This document shows, one piece after another, positions 1,404-28,322 of a DNA stretch of 28,322 nucleotides. Source of the stretch: a virus. Under the pieces are notes generated by a model. That model had not been told where the DNA came from and ran no database searches. It saw only the letters and a program-made list of their open reading frames with translations. Location of the stretch: IMG/VR virus record IMGVR_UViG_3300028883_000994, positions 1 through 28,322 of that record; one strand, written 5' to 3'. Position 1 is the first letter of the stretch, and each line of letters begins with the position of its first letter. Both the position numbers and the translations under genes were made by a program.

Positions 1404-1500
1404 AAAACGACCCCATTCGCGTATGTAATCCTTGAAGCGGGATACTCCCTTTTCCCTCTTCATCGAAGGCAAGCATCCGTTCATGAGATAGGGTTCCAAT
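1404..1500 (-). pseudogene. Possible IS91-type transposase fragment
   Basis: In one minus-strand frame the bases near 1500-1445 read GTLSHERMLAFDEEGKG. In the next frame, from about 1445, they read VSRFKDYIREWGRF. Joined by one frameshift, these recall the IS91/Y2 transposase stretch with the form AIS-x-x-RLLAFD followed by VSFRFKDYR. The next expected block (the MTL and RRFLLHVLP region) is not found. The match is short and comes from memory of the family, so it is weak. It ends almost exactly at the start codon of the phage gene at 1499, where an insertion or deletion boundary would fall. Confidence 0.2.
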
Positions 1501-4500
1501 GTTCGATTCCGACGACACAGCACTGCAGTTCCTCCTGGAAGGCGACGCGCTTCTGGCGGTTGGATCCGCCGAGTCCGATGACTCAACCCAAGACTATGTC
1601 ACCAGCTATATCGGTTCCAAGCGGAAACTCGTCGATTGGATCTGGCAGCACACGCCAGATGGGGTCGGATCGGTGTTGGATGCCTTCTGTGGCAGCGCCG
1701 TTGTCGCGTACATGTTCAAGAAGCAGGGGTTGCGGGTTGTCGCCAATGACCGTCTGAACTTCGCCTGGCACATCGCCAGGGCGATCATCGAGAATGATTC
1801 GGTTACTCTGACGGATGACGACATCGATGCGCTGCTCCAACCCAACGCCAAAGCCGACGATTTCGTGGCCAAGACCTTCGCGGGAAAGTATTTCCGCAAA
1901 GGTGTCCATGAACGGATCGACGAGGTCCGGGCGAACATCGACAAACTGAAGGGCTTCAAGAAGGACATCGCCCTCTTTGCTCTCGGCCGTACCTGCATGA
2001 ACGCTGCCGGGAGTTTCGGGCACTTCGGGTCGACAGTGGTGAAAGGGCCGGAGTTTGCCAAGTCGCCCAGCGAGTTCGACGAGACCTTCCGCAAGACATG
2101 CAACGCGATCAACGGATTGGTCTTTGACAACGGCAAGGAGAACCGTGCGCTCAACCAGGACATCTCCGACCTGCTGCCGGGGGTCAAGGTCGACCTCGCC
2201 TACTTCGATCCACCGTACGCCACCGAGTATTCCACCACGAATTACGAGACCGCCTACCACTTCATCGAGGGACTGATGACGAAGTGGAAGGGTAAGACCA
2301 TCGACACCGACAGCAAGATGTTGAAGTACGAGGAGGTCGGTGAGGCGACGATTACCGAGAAGAACGCTGAGGAGTTCTTCGGTGGCTTTCTTGAGAGCGC
2401 CAAAGCGATCCCCTACTGGCTGCTCTCTTACCGCGACCACGCCTTCCCCACCGAGCCGCAGATCAAGGCGATCATCGAGAAGCAGGGCAAGGCAACTCGG
2501 ATGTTCAGCCAGGACCACGCCTACCACCTCGCTGGGGCAAAGAAGGGCGATACCCCTTCAAAGGCTAAAGAACGTCTCTTTGTTTGCGGACCATCGGAGG
2601 CATCCCTCAAAACCAAGGCTGAAGCTGACCAGGATGCCCTGCTTGCTACCGCATCAGCGACCGCAGGTGATCTCGCTGCGGAAGCGGTGAAGAGCAAGCG
2701 CGTGATGGTGACCGCTTTCATGGGCAGCAAGACCGCGATGCTGGAGTGGATCTGGAAGCATACCCCAGACAACGTCGAATCGGTCCTGGACCTCTTCAGC
2801 GGTGGGTCAAACGTCGCCTACATGTACAAGCTGAAGGGACTTCGGGTCGTCACCAACGACCTGTTGAAGTACCCCTACCACATCGCTCGGGCCGTGATCG
2901 AGAACAGCAGCGTCACCCTGGCCGAGGAGGAGGTGGACGACCTGATGAAGCCCAACTCCAAAGCCGGGGATTTCATTGTCCGGACATTCAACGGCTACTA
3001 CTACACCAAGCCGATCCTTGAGTTCCTCGACAACACTTGGGCGAGCATCCAGGAACTTGCCGGGTACAAGAAGGACCTGGCACTTTTCGCCCTCGGCCGG
3101 ACCTGCCAGATCAAAGCCGCCTTCGGGGAGTTCGCACGGTCTAAGAAGAACCTGACCGAATCGATCAGCAAGTCCAACGACCCCAAGCGATACGAGCATT
3201 CAAGCCTCGGCAACATCCCCCTGTCCGAGTTCACCGACACCTTCAGGAAATGCCTGCAGGACGCCAACTCGCTGGTGTTCGACAACGGCCAGAGCTGCAA
3301 GGCCTACAACGGGGATTCCCTCTCCTTGATGCCACGGCTAAACGTCGACTTGGTTTACGCCGACCCTCCCTACATCACGCAGTTCGGCGCAAACGATTAC
3401 GAATCGAAGATGCACTTCGTCGAAGGGTTGATGACCCGCTGGAAGGACAAGAAACTCCTCGACAACGGGCTGCGGAGCTTTGAGTCACGCACCAAGTACA
3501 CGAAGGAATCCATCACCGAACTGATCCAGGGTGTGGTCGAAGGTTCCTCCCGGATGAAGGCGCATCTGCTGCTCTCCTACCGCGACAAGGCGTTTCCCAC
3601 CGCAGAGGAGCTGAAGGAAATGATGGGGGATCGATACGGCAATGTCGATTTCCGTCGCAAGGGTGTCACCTACCACCTCGCCCGTTGGGCCGATGAAGAA
3701 GGCGGCAAGAACGCCCAGGAATACCTCGTCATCGGCAGCAAACCGAAGGCGAAGGCTGCCGAAGAAATGCCGGACAACGGACTGGTCGGACACGCAATCG
3801 AAGTCAGCGATGTCCACTTGACCGCCTTGGCAGAAGCGGACGATGCGGCCGAACCCACCTTCGAGTTCATCCTCGCCCATGTCGGCACGAACAAGAACGG
3901 CGATGTCTTCCTGGCCGACGAGCTGAAGAAAGCCGTTCGGACGATCATCGACAAGAAGATCAACCTGCAGCATGACCAGTACCTCGGTGCGGTGGTCGGC
4001 AAGGTCACCGACGCCAAGTGGGAAGACGACGAGGGTGGTCGCATCCGCTGCACCGGCGTGCTCTTCACAGAGGATGTCGAGGCAGCACGGTCGGCTTACC
4101 GCCTGCTGAAAGAAGGATTCATCCCCGTGGTCTCAATGGAATGCCGCATGGAAAAGGCGCGGTGTTCCTATTGCGGCAAAGAAGCAGTTGGTGAAAGCGA
4201 CCTCTGCATTCACCTGAAGAAACACCACAACCGAGAATTCAAGGGCAAACGCGTAACGCGCGAGATGGTCGGGATCACGTTCACCGGCGTCGGTCTGCTT
4301 GAAGGCACTCCCGCCGATGACCGCGCTTTGATCACTCGTGTCGCACAAAAGGAAGGACAAAAAACATCGATGAAGTACAAACGGTTCCGGGAAACTACCC
4401 CAAGCGGGATTGAGAACGCCGCCAAGCTGGCCGAAGCGTTCGCCTCCTACCTGGACGGCTTGCTGGAAGAGCATGACGATCCGGACGTCAAGGAGTTGGT

Positions 4501-5011
4501 AAAGCAATCCACCGGCGACTTCACCGCCATGGCAAGTGACCTGATCACCGAGGCGGCGAAAAAGCCGTTTAAGGATGACCTCGTCAAGGAAAACGAGGAC
4601 CTGAAGAAGCAGGTGGAAACCCTGACCAAGGAACTCGACGAAATCCGCAAAGCCGAGAAGACGAAGGCGAAGGCGGAGGCTGCCCTTGAAATCCTCGAGC
4701 TGATGAAGAAGACGGGACGGGCGTTCGAGAACGAAGCCGCCGAAAAGGCCGAGCTGAAACGCTTGCAGGATCTGTCCGAGGAGACGCTCGCTGAACTGAA
4801 GGGCAGCCTGACCACGCTGAAGGCGGCAGCGGAGATCGTCGAACCGAAGGGTGTCACCCGCACCAACGGTGCGAACCGGCCACAGCTGCAGCCGGATGAA
4901 CCTCCGGGCAACCTGACCGAGCTGCGCGGCACGATCCGTGAGGGACTGCAGATTTCTTACGCCCGCTACAAGTCCGCAGATGTCGAAGAAGACTTCGAAG
5001 GAAAGGATTAA
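1499..5011 (+). CDS. Fusion of two DNA adenine methylase domains with prohead protease and scaffold
   Basis: A 1170-residue, four-part protein. Residues about 30-365 and 395-745 are two D12/COG3392-like adenine methylase domains. Domain A has YIGSKRKL, motif I D61-AFCGS and DPPY at 237-240; domain B has FMGSK, motif I D431-LFSGGS and DPPY at 622-625. Both keep the catalytic DPPY. Residues about 760-945 resemble an S78/HK97-type prohead protease: FEFILAHVG, His825 in LQHD, Ser879 in VVSMEC, and the closing GVGLLEGTPADDRA that matches the usual EVS-V-PAN-A region. A C889/C892/C903/H905 zinc-knuckle-like insert lies between. Residues about 1030-1125 are a highly charged coiled coil typical of scaffolds. 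The gene sits directly before the decoration and capsid genes, as a protease/scaffold should. An in-frame stop at 1484 fixes ATG 1499 as the first start, with AGGG upstream. The protease and scaffold roles are confident from context; the reason for the fusion is inference. Confidence 0.85.
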   Translation: MFDSDDTALQFLLEGDALLAVGSAESDDSTQDYVTSYIGSKRKLVDWIWQHTPDGVGSVLDAFCGSAVVAYMFKKQGLRVVANDRLNFAWHIARAIIENDSVTLTDDDIDALLQPNAKADDFVAKTFAGKYFRKGVHERIDEVRANIDKLKGFKKDIALFALGRTCMNAAGSFGHFGSTVVKGPEFAKSPSEFDETFRKTCNAINGLVFDNGKENRALNQDISDLLPGVKVDLAYFDPPYATEYSTTNYETAYHFIEGLMTKWKGKTIDTDSKMLKYEEVGEATITEKNAEEFFGGFLESAKAIPYWLLSYRDHAFPTEPQIKAIIEKQGKATRMFSQDHAYHLAGAKKGDTPSKAKERLFVCGPSEASLKTKAEADQDALLATASATAGDLAAEAVKSKRVMVTAFMGSKTAMLEWIWKHTPDNVESVLDLFSGGSNVAYMYKLKGLRVVTNDLLKYPYHIARAVIENSSVTLAEEEVDDLMKPNSKAGDFIVRTFNGYYYTKPILEFLDNTWASIQELAGYKKDLALFALGRTCQIKAAFGEFARSKKNLTESISKSNDPKRYEHSSLGNIPLSEFTDTFRKCLQDANSLVFDNGQSCKAYNGDSLSLMPRLNVDLVYADPPYITQFGANDYESKMHFVEGLMTRWKDKKLLDNGLRSFESRTKYTKESITELIQGVVEGSSRMKAHLLLSYRDKAFPTAEELKEMMGDRYGNVDFRRKGVTYHLARWADEEGGKNAQEYLVIGSKPKAKAAEEMPDNGLVGHAIEVSDVHLTALAEADDAAEPTFEFILAHVGTNKNGDVFLADELKKAVRTIIDKKINLQHDQYLGAVVGKVTDAKWEDDEGGRIRCTGVLFTEDVEAARSAYRLLKEGFIPVVSMECRMEKARCSYCGKEAVGESDLCIHLKKHHNREFKGKRVTREMVGITFTGVGLLEGTPADDRALITRVAQKEGQKTSMKYKRFRETTPSGIENAAKLAEAFASYLDGLLEEHDDPDVKELVKQSTGDFTAMASDLITEAAKKPFKDDLVKENEDLKKQVETLTKELDEIRKAEKTKAKAEAALEILELMKKTGRAFENEAAEKAELKRLQDLSEETLAELKGSLTTLKAAAEIVEPKGVTRTNGANRPQLQPDEPPGNLTELRGTIREGLQISYARYKSADVEEDFEGKD
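4370..5011 (+). CDS. Possible internal start giving scaffold alone
   Basis: Within the fusion gene, GGAAGGA (4351-4357) precedes an in-frame ATG at 4370 (Met958) by 12 nt. Starting there would give 213 residues that hold only the coiled-coil scaffold and tail. Lambda C/Nu3 and related head modules make scaffold this way. The spacing is longer than ideal, so this is a candidate only. Confidence 0.3.
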   Translation: MKYKRFRETTPSGIENAAKLAEAFASYLDGLLEEHDDPDVKELVKQSTGDFTAMASDLITEAAKKPFKDDLVKENEDLKKQVETLTKELDEIRKAEKTKAKAEAALEILELMKKTGRAFENEAAEKAELKRLQDLSEETLAELKGSLTTLKAAAEIVEPKGVTRTNGANRPQLQPDEPPGNLTELRGTIREGLQISYARYKSADVEEDFEGKD

Positions 5012-5014
5012 CCC

Positions 5015-5434
5015 ATGGCCAACCTGGTCAATGCAACCTACCCGGGGATCGAGTATCCCTATTTCAAGGTGGTCGGCCCGGCGGCGGACGGGACGTTCGT
5101 CAAGATGACCGCCAGCGACGAAGTCGCCCAAGTCAGCGATCAGGCCGATGAAGCGATCGGCGTGATGATCGAAACCTTCTTCCCCCACGACTACTACGTG
5201 CAAGCAGTCGACGAGAAGCTGCGCTGTGCCGTAATGATCGGTCAAAGCGCGCTCGACTTCACCTCCTGGTCCGGCACGATCGTCACCGGCAACGATGTCT
5301 CGTTCGATCCAACCGACGGACATCCTCGCGCCGCCATTGCGGGCGATACGATCTACGGCAAGTGCGTCCAGCATGGCGACAGCAAGATCCGTGTGCTGCT
5401 CTACGGCCACGGCATCGGCGTGGTGGCGGCCTGA
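5015..5434 (+). CDS. Capsid decoration protein (probable)
   Basis: A 139-residue, beta-rich, soluble protein that begins 3 nt after the protease/scaffold stop and 32 nt before the major capsid gene. That is the usual slot of the lambda gpD-like or DUF2190-type head decoration protein. The sequence has the features expected of such small beta-barrel proteins: an N-terminal extended arm (NATYPGIEYPYFKVVGPA), an AIGVMIE strand, and a glycine-rich end (YGHGIGVVAA). The ribosome site GAAAGG lies in the end of the preceding gene, which suggests translational coupling. I assign the role mainly from position and fold-like features; no catalytic motif is present. Confidence 0.65.
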   Translation: MANLVNATYPGIEYPYFKVVGPAADGTFVKMTASDEVAQVSDQADEAIGVMIETFFPHDYYVQAVDEKLRCAVMIGQSALDFTSWSGTIVTGNDVSFDPTDGHPRAAIAGDTIYGKCVQHGDSKIRVLLYGHGIGVVAA

Positions 5435-5466: not shown

Positions 5467-6357
5467 ATGAAGACTCGCAAAGGAATCCTCACCCAAATGG
5501 ACGTTGAACGGATGGACGCACTGGGTAAGGCGATGCAGCGGGCGCTCTCCAGCGACGACGGGCTTGTCGCCCTGGCACAGGAGATGGTGCCGGAGATCAC
5601 TCGCGAGCTGGAAGAGAAGTTCTGGGTGCCGTTGGTGTTCCGTGAGGACCCGCTCCCGGCAGGCAAGGTACCGAAATACCGGGTGAAACAGGACGTCGAA
5701 GTCCACTGGATGGCCCCTGGCGGCGAACCCGCCCGCCAACGCATCCGCAAAGGGCAGGAGATCCAGTTCCCGCTGGAGATGGTGGAATCGTTCATCATCG
5801 TCAAGGCGCGTGACCTGAAGATGGGGTACGTCTCCGACCTGACCACGCAGCAGGCCGAAGCGGGCCGCAAGATGCGCAACAAGATCAATGCTGCGGCTGC
5901 AGCCGTGCTCAGCGCGGCCGCCGATGCGGCCAATGCGGAAGGCAGCCAGAACATCTTCGAGGTCACCTCGGGCGGCAAGCTCACCCTCGATGCGGTGAAG
6001 GCATCGCTGCGTTTCTACGAAGACCAGGAGATGTCGATCAAGCAGATGGTGATGCGCGGCGCACGCCTGGTGGACATGTACGACTGGACCCTCCCCACCG
6101 AGGTGCAGAGCGAACTGCTGCGTGCAGGCGTGTTGAAGAAGCTCGGCACAGCAGGGTTGATCGGCACGTCATCGGCTAATTCGTCGGAGGTGATCTGCTC
6201 CCCGGACGAGGAGATCGGCGTCTACGCGATCGGCAGCGCGCTGACGGTTGAGCCGTGGCGCGATGTGCCCAAGGATGAGGTCGGGTTCGTCGCCCGCATG
6301 GAGGTGTCGCTGGGCGTTCTGCATCCCTCCCGGATTTTCAAGATCACCATCACGTAG
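5467..6357 (+). CDS. Major capsid protein, HK97-fold
   Basis: A 296-residue protein placed directly after protease/scaffold and decoration genes. It has an N-terminal charged helix (about residues 10-50), a basic extended-loop-like segment (PKYRVKQDVEVHW to RIRKGQEIQFP, about 70-105), a long helix rich in alanine (about 130-160, the spine helix), and a C-terminal beta segment ending in LGVLHPSRIFKITIT. This layout matches HK97-type major capsid proteins. The short N-terminal part suggests that the scaffold is the separate C-terminal domain of the protein encoded at 1499 rather than a delta domain here. AAAGGAAC lies about 12 nt before the ATG. The identification is based on position and layout, without a search. 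Confidence 0.75.
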   Translation: MKTRKGILTQMDVERMDALGKAMQRALSSDDGLVALAQEMVPEITRELEEKFWVPLVFREDPLPAGKVPKYRVKQDVEVHWMAPGGEPARQRIRKGQEIQFPLEMVESFIIVKARDLKMGYVSDLTTQQAEAGRKMRNKINAAAAAVLSAAADAANAEGSQNIFEVTSGGKLTLDAVKASLRFYEDQEMSIKQMVMRGARLVDMYDWTLPTEVQSELLRAGVLKKLGTAGLIGTSSANSSEVICSPDEEIGVYAIGSALTVEPWRDVPKDEVGFVARMEVSLGVLHPSRIFKITIT

Positions 6358-27046: not shown

Positions 27047-27278
27047 CGTTTTCGGTTCTGCGCGGCTTCTCTCCCTCCGAGCAAATGAAAGCTCTGGCAC
27101 TTGGACGCAAGGCTCTACTGCTTATCCTCGTCGGTCACAGAGTCTTACTTCGAATTGACTTAGAGCGGCTTCCTATAGCTGGTCTGTGAACTGTGGACTT
27201 GCATGTATGATGGTTTGAGTATTACTGTTTGACGCGCGACGGAGTGTCTTTTTACCTAACTCTCAAAGGAAAATATTG
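27047..27278. other. Right junction, no gene seen
   Basis: These 232 bases lie between the endolysin and the methyltransferase gene. No convincing gene, tRNA or rho-independent terminator is visible. A TATGAT at 27206-27211 could be a -10 box for the next gene but has no good -35. AAAGGA (27265-27270) is the ribosome site of the gene at 27279. Confidence 0.5.
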
Positions 27279-28322
27279 ATGCAGCCTGATCCGGGACTTT
27301 TTGATGGCAGAATTGATGCTGACTCTTACGCTGCCAGAGCTAGGCAGATAGTTGGTTCTCTGTCAGACCCTGAGCAATTCTACCCAAGTGAATCCACTGA
27401 TGTGAGTTCATGGATTCAGGAATGGGACTTCCGCAAAGCAAAAATTGACGTCTACACACATCAAATTCATCGCTACCCTGCGATGTTCATTCCGCAGCTC
27501 ATTCGAAAGATTCTTCTCGCCTATTCCCAAGTGGGTGATACAGTAGTAGACATATTTAATGGATCAGGTACTACTACTGTAGAATGTCTCTTAACTGACA
27601 GAAACGGTATTGGAATTGAGATAAACCCTTTAGCTGTAATGATCTCTCGCGTAAAGACCACTTTAGTTGATCCACAGTTGTTAATCGCAGGCTTTGAACG
27701 TATCGTATCACTCTACGGAGATAGTGACTTCGAGTATCATCTAGTTGATTTTCCTAACATAGATAAGTGGTTTGTGCCCAGCAGTATCAGATGGCTATCT
27801 AAACTTCTCGCTGCTATAGAGGATCAGGATAACCCTACAGTTTCTGAAGCATTTAAAGTTGCTTTTAGCGACATCATCCGCTATGTATCTGTTGTTCGAC
27901 ACAATGGGTTTAAACTACATGCCGACCCTAAGAAGAAAAGCAAGGAATGGACAAACATAGACATATTAGATAGGTTTTCTGAATCCGTTGCTACACTGAT
28001 ACGAGCTTTGACTGACTTGTGGAATAAGGGAATTTCGACAGAAAGCAAAATCCTAGCTCAGGATTCAACAACAAAGATTCGTGAATTAGCTGAAGTGGCA
28101 GATCTTGTACTCACCTCTCCACCCTATGGTGATTCACACACTACGGTCGCATATGGGCAGTTCTCTCGACTCTCTGCACAGTGGCTGGGCTTAATAGGAA
28201 CAACCGAAAGAGGGGGAATCCGGAACGTAGACAGTGAACTTCTCGGAGGTGTGTATAAGGGGATCGACATAGAGGATCCAATCTTGGGTCGGTCAATCAC
28301 CCTGAACACCTCGATAATGGGC
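27279..28322 (+). CDS. DNA methyltransferase, SPPY type, 5' part
   Basis: The reading frame is open from ATG 27279 to the end of the window (348 codons), so the gene is cut off at the right edge. AAAGGA lies 8 nt upstream. It has the N-terminal phrase THQIHRYPAMF (60-70) found in a group of SAM-dependent DNA methylases, motif I DIFNGSGTT (91-99) and motif IV TSPPY (279-283). SPPY usually marks N4-cytosine methylases; motif I before motif IV with a large gap is alpha-like order. Codon use is more AT-rich than in the phage genes. It is probably part of a chromosomal or island modification system whose partner gene may lie beyond the edge. Confidence 0.8.
   Translation, partial: MQPDPGLFDGRIDADSYAARARQIVGSLSDPEQFYPSESTDVSSWIQEWDFRKAKIDVYTHQIHRYPAMFIPQLIRKILLAYSQVGDTVVDIFNGSGTTTVECLLTDRNGIGIEINPLAVMISRVKTTLVDPQLLIAGFERIVSLYGDSDFEYHLVDFPNIDKWFVPSSIRWLSKLLAAIEDQDNPTVSEAFKVAFSDIIRYVSVVRHNGFKLHADPKKKSKEWTNIDILDRFSESVATLIRALTDLWNKGISTESKILAQDSTTKIRELAEVADLVLTSPPYGDSHTTVAYGQFSRLSAQWLGLIGTTERGGIRNVDSELLGGVYKGIDIEDPILGRSITLNTSIMG

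What the first reader, a model, noticed from the sequence alone, without database searches (positions are those of the whole stretch)
1499..5011. Two DNA methylases fused to the capsid protease and scaffold: possible packaged anti-restriction cargo
One uninterrupted frame joins two adenine-methylase domains (both with intact DPPY) to a prohead protease (His825, Ser879) and a coiled-coil scaffold. Scaffold domains are built into the procapsid, so the fusion would place methylases inside the head. Self-cleavage by the protease could then free them there. P1 DarB is a known virion-packaged methyltransferase-like protein that protects injected DNA from restriction. The inference is that this phage delivers or uses methylases inside the capsid through scaffold fusion, for example to modify DNA during packaging or just after entry. 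I know of no described system built this way.
Basis: partly seen in the sequence, partly recalled or inferred. Interest (0 to 1): 0.85.

Follow-up and report, generated by a model that had tools for sequence, protein, structure and literature searches.

The report
DNA methylases fused to phage head protease
In a widespread, unnamed family of tailed phages, one or two DNA-modifying enzymes are built permanently into the protein that cuts and scaffolds the growing virus head, which would place them where the viral DNA is packed, though nobody has yet looked for them inside the particle.

Summary
Window 1499-5011 is one open frame of 1170 aa: two D12 N6-adenine methylases, a T4-gp21/assemblin-type prohead protease (His825, Ser879) with a zinc finger, then a coiled-coil scaffold, just upstream of the major capsid gene. 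It is neither an artefact nor a local deletion. The same fusion, with one or two methylases, occurs in 99 distinct loci (40 clusters at 90% identity). A search by the protease alone found the methylase in the same frame in 79 of 80 loci; the other was cut off by its contig end. Every complete methylase keeps DPPY, and dN/dS is 0.03-0.21. A ribosome-binding site plus in-frame start at the protease/scaffold border (29 of 40 clusters), and none in the methylase/protease linker, suggests that scaffold is also made alone but protease only with methylase. So whatever brings the protease into the procapsid should bring the methylases too. Encapsidation and action on phage DNA in or from the head is the best reading (about 55%); no virion data exist. 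The nearest functional precedent is P1 DarB, but this is not a DarB homologue. I found no description in the open papers searched; PHROGs holds the family labelled only "DNA methyltransferase".

The parts
1499..5011 (+). whole fusion gene, 1170 aa: MTase1-MTase2-protease-scaffold
   Evidence: open frame; same architecture in 99 distinct loci
1583..2602 (+). MTase1, D12-class N6-adenine methylase domain (residues 29-368), SAM motif DAFCGS and DPPY intact
   Evidence: PF02086; profile coordinates; Foldseek E. coli Dam
2603..2692 (+). linker MTase1-MTase2, low-confidence in the model
   Evidence: in other lineages holds a ~90-aa insert
2693..3751 (+). MTase2, D12-class domain (residues 399-751), DLFSGG and DPPY intact; absent in one-methylase relatives
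3752..3859 (+). linker MTase2-protease, no internal start signal in any cluster
3860..4369 (+). prohead protease domain (residues 788-957); His825 codon 3971-3973, Ser879 codon 4133-4135
4163..4213 (+). zinc-finger-like insert in the protease: Cys889, Cys892, Cys903, His905, all invariant
4353..4357 (+). candidate internal Shine-Dalgarno (AAGGA), 12 bases before the in-frame ATG
   Evidence: stronger forms in relatives
4370..5008 (+). coiled-coil scaffold domain; candidate internal start codon ATG 4370-4372 (Met958)
5015..5434 (+). 139-aa gene between fusion and capsid gene, possible decoration protein (by position only)
   Evidence: no family match
5467..6357 (+). major capsid protein
   Evidence: phrog_2522, E 7.9e-29

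Best explanation
The gene encodes a head-assembly precursor in which one or two D12 N6-adenine DNA methylases are obligate N-terminal domains of the prohead protease-scaffold protein. Free scaffold is also made from an internal start at the protease/scaffold border. The scaffold end of the long form carries protease plus methylases into the procapsid core as a minor component. The protease then cuts the linkers, leaving folded methylases in the head, where they act on the phage's own DNA during packaging, or leave with it and act at entry, most simply to protect it from restriction. Shown here: architecture, wide conservation, intact catalytic motifs, purifying selection, conserved start signals for the scaffold only. 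Inferred: internal initiation itself, co-assembly, cleavage, retention in the head, methylation of phage DNA.
For: Fusion in 99 distinct loci, generally just upstream of the capsid gene. A protease-only search found the methylase in the same frame in 79 of 80 loci, the last being truncated. SD of 6 or more bases plus in-frame start at the protease/scaffold border: 29 of 56 starts, versus 38 of 2583 out-of-frame starts and 0 of 92 in the methylase-protease linker, so protease appears to be made only with methylase. DPPY in every complete methylase domain; dN/dS 0.03-0.21. Folds match Dam and T4 gp21. P1 precedent for packed and co-ejected Dar proteins.
Against: No virion proteomics or methylome. 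Cleavage could happen before assembly, or destroy the methylases. Lineages that lost MTase2 show that the second enzyme is dispensable. Low dN/dS is not what a changing arms race over restriction sites would predict. The internal-start signal is weak in the window itself (AAGGA).
Confidence: 0.55

Rival explanations
1. Ordinary cytoplasmic methylation: the methylases act in the producing cell late in infection, before or without entering the head. The fusion only guarantees late, protease-matched expression, and the methylases are trimmed off outside the capsid.
For: Many phages make free methylases that modify their DNA in the cell (general knowledge). Free D12 methylases also occur in related hosts.
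Against: In mosaic phage genomes a mere expression link should often break, yet 79 of 80 loci stay fused, and no start signal lets the protease be made alone. The window phage also has a separate N6_N4 methylase at its right end.
Confidence: 0.25
2. Packaging control: methylation marks or licenses phage DNA for packaging by the nascent head, as Dam methylation controls cutting of P1 pac, rather than protecting against restriction.
For: P1 pac precedent (PMC12707154). Strongly conserved methylases with no sign of changing specificity fit a fixed internal target. Location in the head module.
Against: No pac site or terminase link was shown. Loss of MTase2 in several lineages needs explaining.
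Confidence: 0.13
3. The methylase domains serve mainly as DNA-binding or structural parts of the procapsid core; catalysis is incidental.
For: Permanent fusion to assembly proteins; domain number varies from one to two.
Against: DPPY is kept in every complete domain across 40 clusters and the domains evolve under strong purifying selection.
Confidence: 0.05
4. Artefact: chimeric assembly, sequencing error or a one-off local deletion.
For: A few loci (L005, L064, L119, L132) have a broken frame, so errors or decay do occur.
Against: The same frame occurs in many independent assemblies, including closed chromosomes of Desulfosarcina alkanivorans, D. widdelii and Sulfidibacter corallicola.
Confidence: 0.01

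Closest known systems
Phage P1 Dar system, DarB (virion-packaged methyltransferase-helicase)
   Same: A methylase-bearing protein linked to head assembly and, if the inference holds, packed with DNA.
   Different: DarB is a separate 250-kDa protein with its own N-terminal packaging signal, an EcoKI/TaqI-like MTase and an SF2 helicase. Here the MTases are D12/Dam-like, without helicase, and are part of the protease-scaffold protein.
Polyvalent proteins and MuF fusions (Iyer et al. 2017, PMC5512222)
   Same: Effector or enzyme domains fused to head components in phages.
   Different: The prohead protease/scaffold is not a carrier in the passages I read; 'scaffold' does not occur in that paper and 'protease' occurs once.
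Lambda C/Nu3-type protease-scaffold genes and T4 gp21
   Same: Protease followed by scaffold in one frame, with an internal scaffold start; gp21-like fold.
   Different: Those have no enzyme cargo. MTase-free relatives such as L024 and Bacillus phage G gp19 show the plain form.
AlwI-type type IIS restriction-modification methylases
   Same: Two D12 domains in one protein; the nearest free two-domain relatives that I found.
   Different: They sit beside an AlwI-like endonuclease and carry no protease or scaffold.
phrog_27806, annotated 'DNA methyltransferase'
   Same: Its 798-position profile spans MTase, protease and coil: it is this family in its one-MTase form.
   Different: The label does not record the protease or scaffold.

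Membership tests
D12-class N6-adenine DNA methylase (PF02086) | Profile match over cut-off with SAM motif and DPPY | tested here: met
   150 bits against a cut-off of 22, both motifs in both domains; Foldseek Dam
D12-class N6-adenine DNA methylase (PF02086) | Methylates adenine in a specific site | not testable with these tools
   needs expression and methylome
Prohead (head maturation) serine protease, gp21/S78/assemblin group | Catalytic His and Ser, gp21/assemblin fold, gene beside the major capsid gene | tested here: met
   His825 and Ser879 invariant; Foldseek 5jbl and herpesvirus assemblins; capsid gene downstream. Pfam S78 itself only reached E 0.005 in relative L031
Protease-scaffold gene with internal scaffold start (lambda C/Nu3-like) | SD and in-frame start at the protease/scaffold border | tested here: met
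   29 of 40 clusters with SD of 6 or more bases; window weaker, AAGGA
Protease-scaffold gene with internal scaffold start (lambda C/Nu3-like) | Free scaffold protein actually made | not testable with these tools
   needs ribosome profiling or N-terminal sequencing
P1 DarB family | EcoKI/TaqI-like MTase fused to an SF2 helicase | tested here: not met
   D12 MTases; no helicase domain found in the 1170 aa
P1 DarB family | Packaged in the virion and protects DNA in cis | not testable with these tools
   no virions available
AlwI-type R-M methylase | Two D12 domains in one protein | tested here: met
AlwI-type R-M methylase | Adjacent AlwI-like endonuclease | tested here: not met
   Right-hand neighbours are head genes and the window's left neighbour has no family match
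Polyvalent protein | Several enzyme domains in one polypeptide encoded among head genes | tested here: inconclusive
   Architecture fits loosely; the family's own linker domains were not searched

The most novel reading that the evidence does not exclude
An old phage lineage builds its DNA methylases as parts of the prohead protease polyprotein. Every head is loaded with self-released methylases that modify the genome as it is packed or as it enters the next cell, a head-encoded protection system that may help explain how near-identical prophages cross bacterial phyla.
Probability: 0.42. Interest if true: 0.88.

Novelty: new variant of a known kind. Interest (0 to 1): 0.72.

Why it matters
Packaged anti-restriction enzymes are best known from P1, where they are separate, separately targeted proteins. 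Here methylation is tied to the one enzyme that must enter the procapsid, in a family found in isolates and assemblies assigned to several phyla. Several isolate genomes carry it, so it makes a clear, testable model for whether phages methylate DNA inside or from the capsid, and gives a candidate natural scaffold-protease cargo system.

Tried and rejected
Local deletion or misassembly: rejected by conservation. MTase-less close relatives: only one contig-truncated frame (L148) and a decayed fragment (L218); a genuine MTase-free protease-scaffold appeared only at about 22% identity (L024). Independent translation of the protease from a start in the MTase-protease linker: no signal (0 of 92 starts). 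Repeated acquisition of MTase2: not favoured, since all MTase1 domains form one clade and all MTase2 another, meaning one old duplication (or two related domains at the origin) and later losses. A candidate self-cleavage consensus [LM]x[ASTC][EDQ]A is enriched in the N-terminus, linkers and C-tail and not in MTase1, protease or coil, and occurs in 28 of 38 capsid-protein N-termini. But I chose it after seeing the linkers, it also occurs in MTase2 loops, copies are related by descent, and it is poor in the window's own clade, so it stays a hypothesis. Literature: searches combining methyltransferase with prohead/maturation protease, fusion or scaffold, with virion-associated or ejected methyltransferase, and with Desulfosarcina prophage gave no paper whose title or abstract describes this; subscription papers and bioRxiv are not held. 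The first genome scan with the full protein found nothing because its peptide patterns were too specific.

Full report
Observation. The window is a 28,322-base virus record. The frame 1499-5011 is open over 1170 codons. Pfam finds two MethyltransfD12 domains, E 1.3e-43. The C-terminal half is a prohead protease and a coiled coil: phrog_2774, tblastn hits to Bacillus phage G gp19, which lies downstream of its portal gene, and to the annotated capsid maturation protease of Gordonia phage Pupper, invariant His825, Ser879 and a Cys-Cys-Cys-His zinc-finger-like insert. An AlphaFold model from a 38-sequence alignment (mean pLDDT 75) shows two well-predicted methylase domains joined by low-confidence linkers. 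Foldseek matches it to E. coli Dam and T4 gp21, and the protease alone (pLDDT 89) to T4 gp21 and herpesvirus assemblins, with query TM-scores of about 0.5 and 0.3-0.45. The major capsid gene follows at 5467-6357, then head-closure, sheath, tape-measure, baseplate, fibre and lysin genes: a contractile-tailed phage.

Conservation. Six other virus contigs carry close relatives. Three hold the full two-methylase frame at 85-86% identity, one holds it with a single frameshift, and two hold a 797-aa one-methylase form. A search with a methylase alignment found 29 loci in bacterial genomes and 120 in virus contigs, of which 80 were kept. In all, 104 fetched loci, 99 after removing repeats, hold methylase and protease in one frame, in 40 clusters at 90% identity, generally just upstream of the capsid gene. 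Searching by the protease alone, which is not biased towards methylases, returned 80 loci: 79 have the methylase in the same frame and the last is cut by the contig end. phrog_27806, named only DNA methyltransferase, is this same fusion in one-methylase form. In 395 genomes drawn from the phylum of Desulfosarcina, about 9 carry a full-length fusion; the other hits there are free-standing methylases or fragments.

Evolution. In the tree all first methylases form one clade and all second methylases another, so a single old duplication most simply underlies the two-methylase form, and one-methylase lineages (window relatives L006/L007, the Desulfofustis-type clade, L049/L050) have lost the second copy. 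Every complete methylase domain keeps DPPY, and nearly all were scored with the SAM motif. Pairwise dN/dS is 0.03-0.15 for MTase1 and 0.05-0.21 for MTase2, similar to the protease and usually lower than the scaffold. Free-standing two-domain relatives in Erysipelothrix phage phi1605 and in a genome of the Desulfosarcina phylum sit beside AlwI-type endonucleases, suggesting a restriction-modification ancestry and, as a lead only, an AlwI-like target.

How it is probably made. At the border of protease and scaffold, 29 of 40 cluster representatives have a Shine-Dalgarno of at least six bases at proper spacing before an in-frame ATG, GTG or TTG. Counted over starts this is 29 of 56, against 38 of 2583 out-of-frame starts in the same genes, none of 92 starts in the methylase-protease linker and none of 136 in the linker between methylases. 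In the window the signal is weaker (AAGGA, Met958). So scaffold is probably also made alone, as in lambda C/Nu3 (general knowledge), while the protease is made only as a methylase fusion. Since the protease must be inside the procapsid to mature it, the methylases should go there too, at protease copy number. This is the main inferential step; cleavage before assembly could break it.

What it does. P1 shows that Dar proteins, one of them bearing a methylase domain, can be packed in a head and co-ejected (PMC9024508, PMC12810830). The fused methylases are therefore best read as enzymes acting on phage DNA in or from the head, most simply for protection from restriction. The low dN/dS, with no sign of changing specificity, leaves room for packaging-linked marking, as adenine methylation controls P1 pac (PMC12707154). 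Plain cytoplasmic action before assembly is the main rival.

Host range. A prophage segment of about 57 kb is roughly 96% identical between Desulfosarcina alkanivorans (closed chromosome) and Ectothiorhodospira shaposhnikovii (Gammaproteobacteria), with 100% identical capsid proteins and a 308-aa-frame tyrosine recombinase at the same relative position. Desulfofustis, Desulfocarbo, Desulforhopalus and Desulfobulbus isolates carry near-identical copies. The Ectothiorhodospira contig begins with a repeat shared with many other contigs of that genome and with family members, which argues against contamination. Host assignments that rest on metagenome bins are less certain.

Novelty and limits. 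None of the literature searches turned up a description, but only open PubMed Central papers were searched and most hits were judged by title and abstract. The architecture is a new variant of head-linked methylase cargo, not a DarB homologue. Virion presence, cleavage, ejection, activity and target sequence are all untested.

Noticed in passing
L002-L007 between the MuF gene and the fusion (L003:3875-5344, L002:516-1724, L004:3300-4472, L005:1-1938, L006:2224-3540, L007:2262-4104): A variable minus-strand cargo slot: each relative carries a different gene (caspase, HSDR_N/DUF5655, Fic, GmrSD_N, AAA_14/DUF4143, nucleotidyltransferase), most matching PADLOC defence models. The window's 1-645 minus-strand ORF lies in the same place but has no family match.
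   Followed up: partly
L030, L031, L032, L034, L035 and flanks L206-L209: Near-identical prophages (about 96% over the 17 kb compared, and over about 57 kb for one pair) in isolates of different Desulfobacterota families and a gammaproteobacterium, with identical capsid proteins and a tyrosine recombinase: recent transfer across phyla.
   Followed up: partly
L030:2305-6894: A 1529-aa ORF begins with a MuF domain and continues with over 1200 residues without a clear Pfam match, just upstream of the fusion; possibly a MuF polyvalent protein. Similar 1500-aa ORFs lie upstream in other loci.
   Followed up: no
window 27276-28322: A second, separate methylase (N6_N4_Mtase family) at the right end of the record, running off the contig.
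   Followed up: no
fusion linkers and capsid-protein N-termini in L031-L135: A pentapeptide [LM]x[ASTC][EDQ]A recurs at domain borders and in capsid N-termini; a possible protease cleavage consensus, chosen after the fact.
   Followed up: partly
L039, L043, L086 and similar, between MTase1 and MTase2: About half of the two-methylase lineages carry a ~90-aa conserved insert (pattern WEETENEIRYRVRDP...WTLEKAKEWI) between the two methylases, with no Pfam match.
   Followed up: no
L004:2870-3337: A 155-aa ORF repeats the first 99 residues of the fusion at 77% identity, upstream of the full gene: a remnant of a past recombination in the cargo slot.
   Followed up: no
L005, L064, L119, L132 fusion genes: Frame breaks within the fusion gene in four records; sequencing error, decay or frameshifting not distinguished.
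   Followed up: no
L221:5379-7190: A bacterial 603-aa protein joins RadC to a D12 methylase.
   Followed up: no
Foldseek BFVD hit A0A6J5N5R9: A 679-aa uncultured-phage protein with this protease fold is annotated as containing a ferritin/DPS domain, hinting at other cargo fused to prohead proteases.
   Followed up: no
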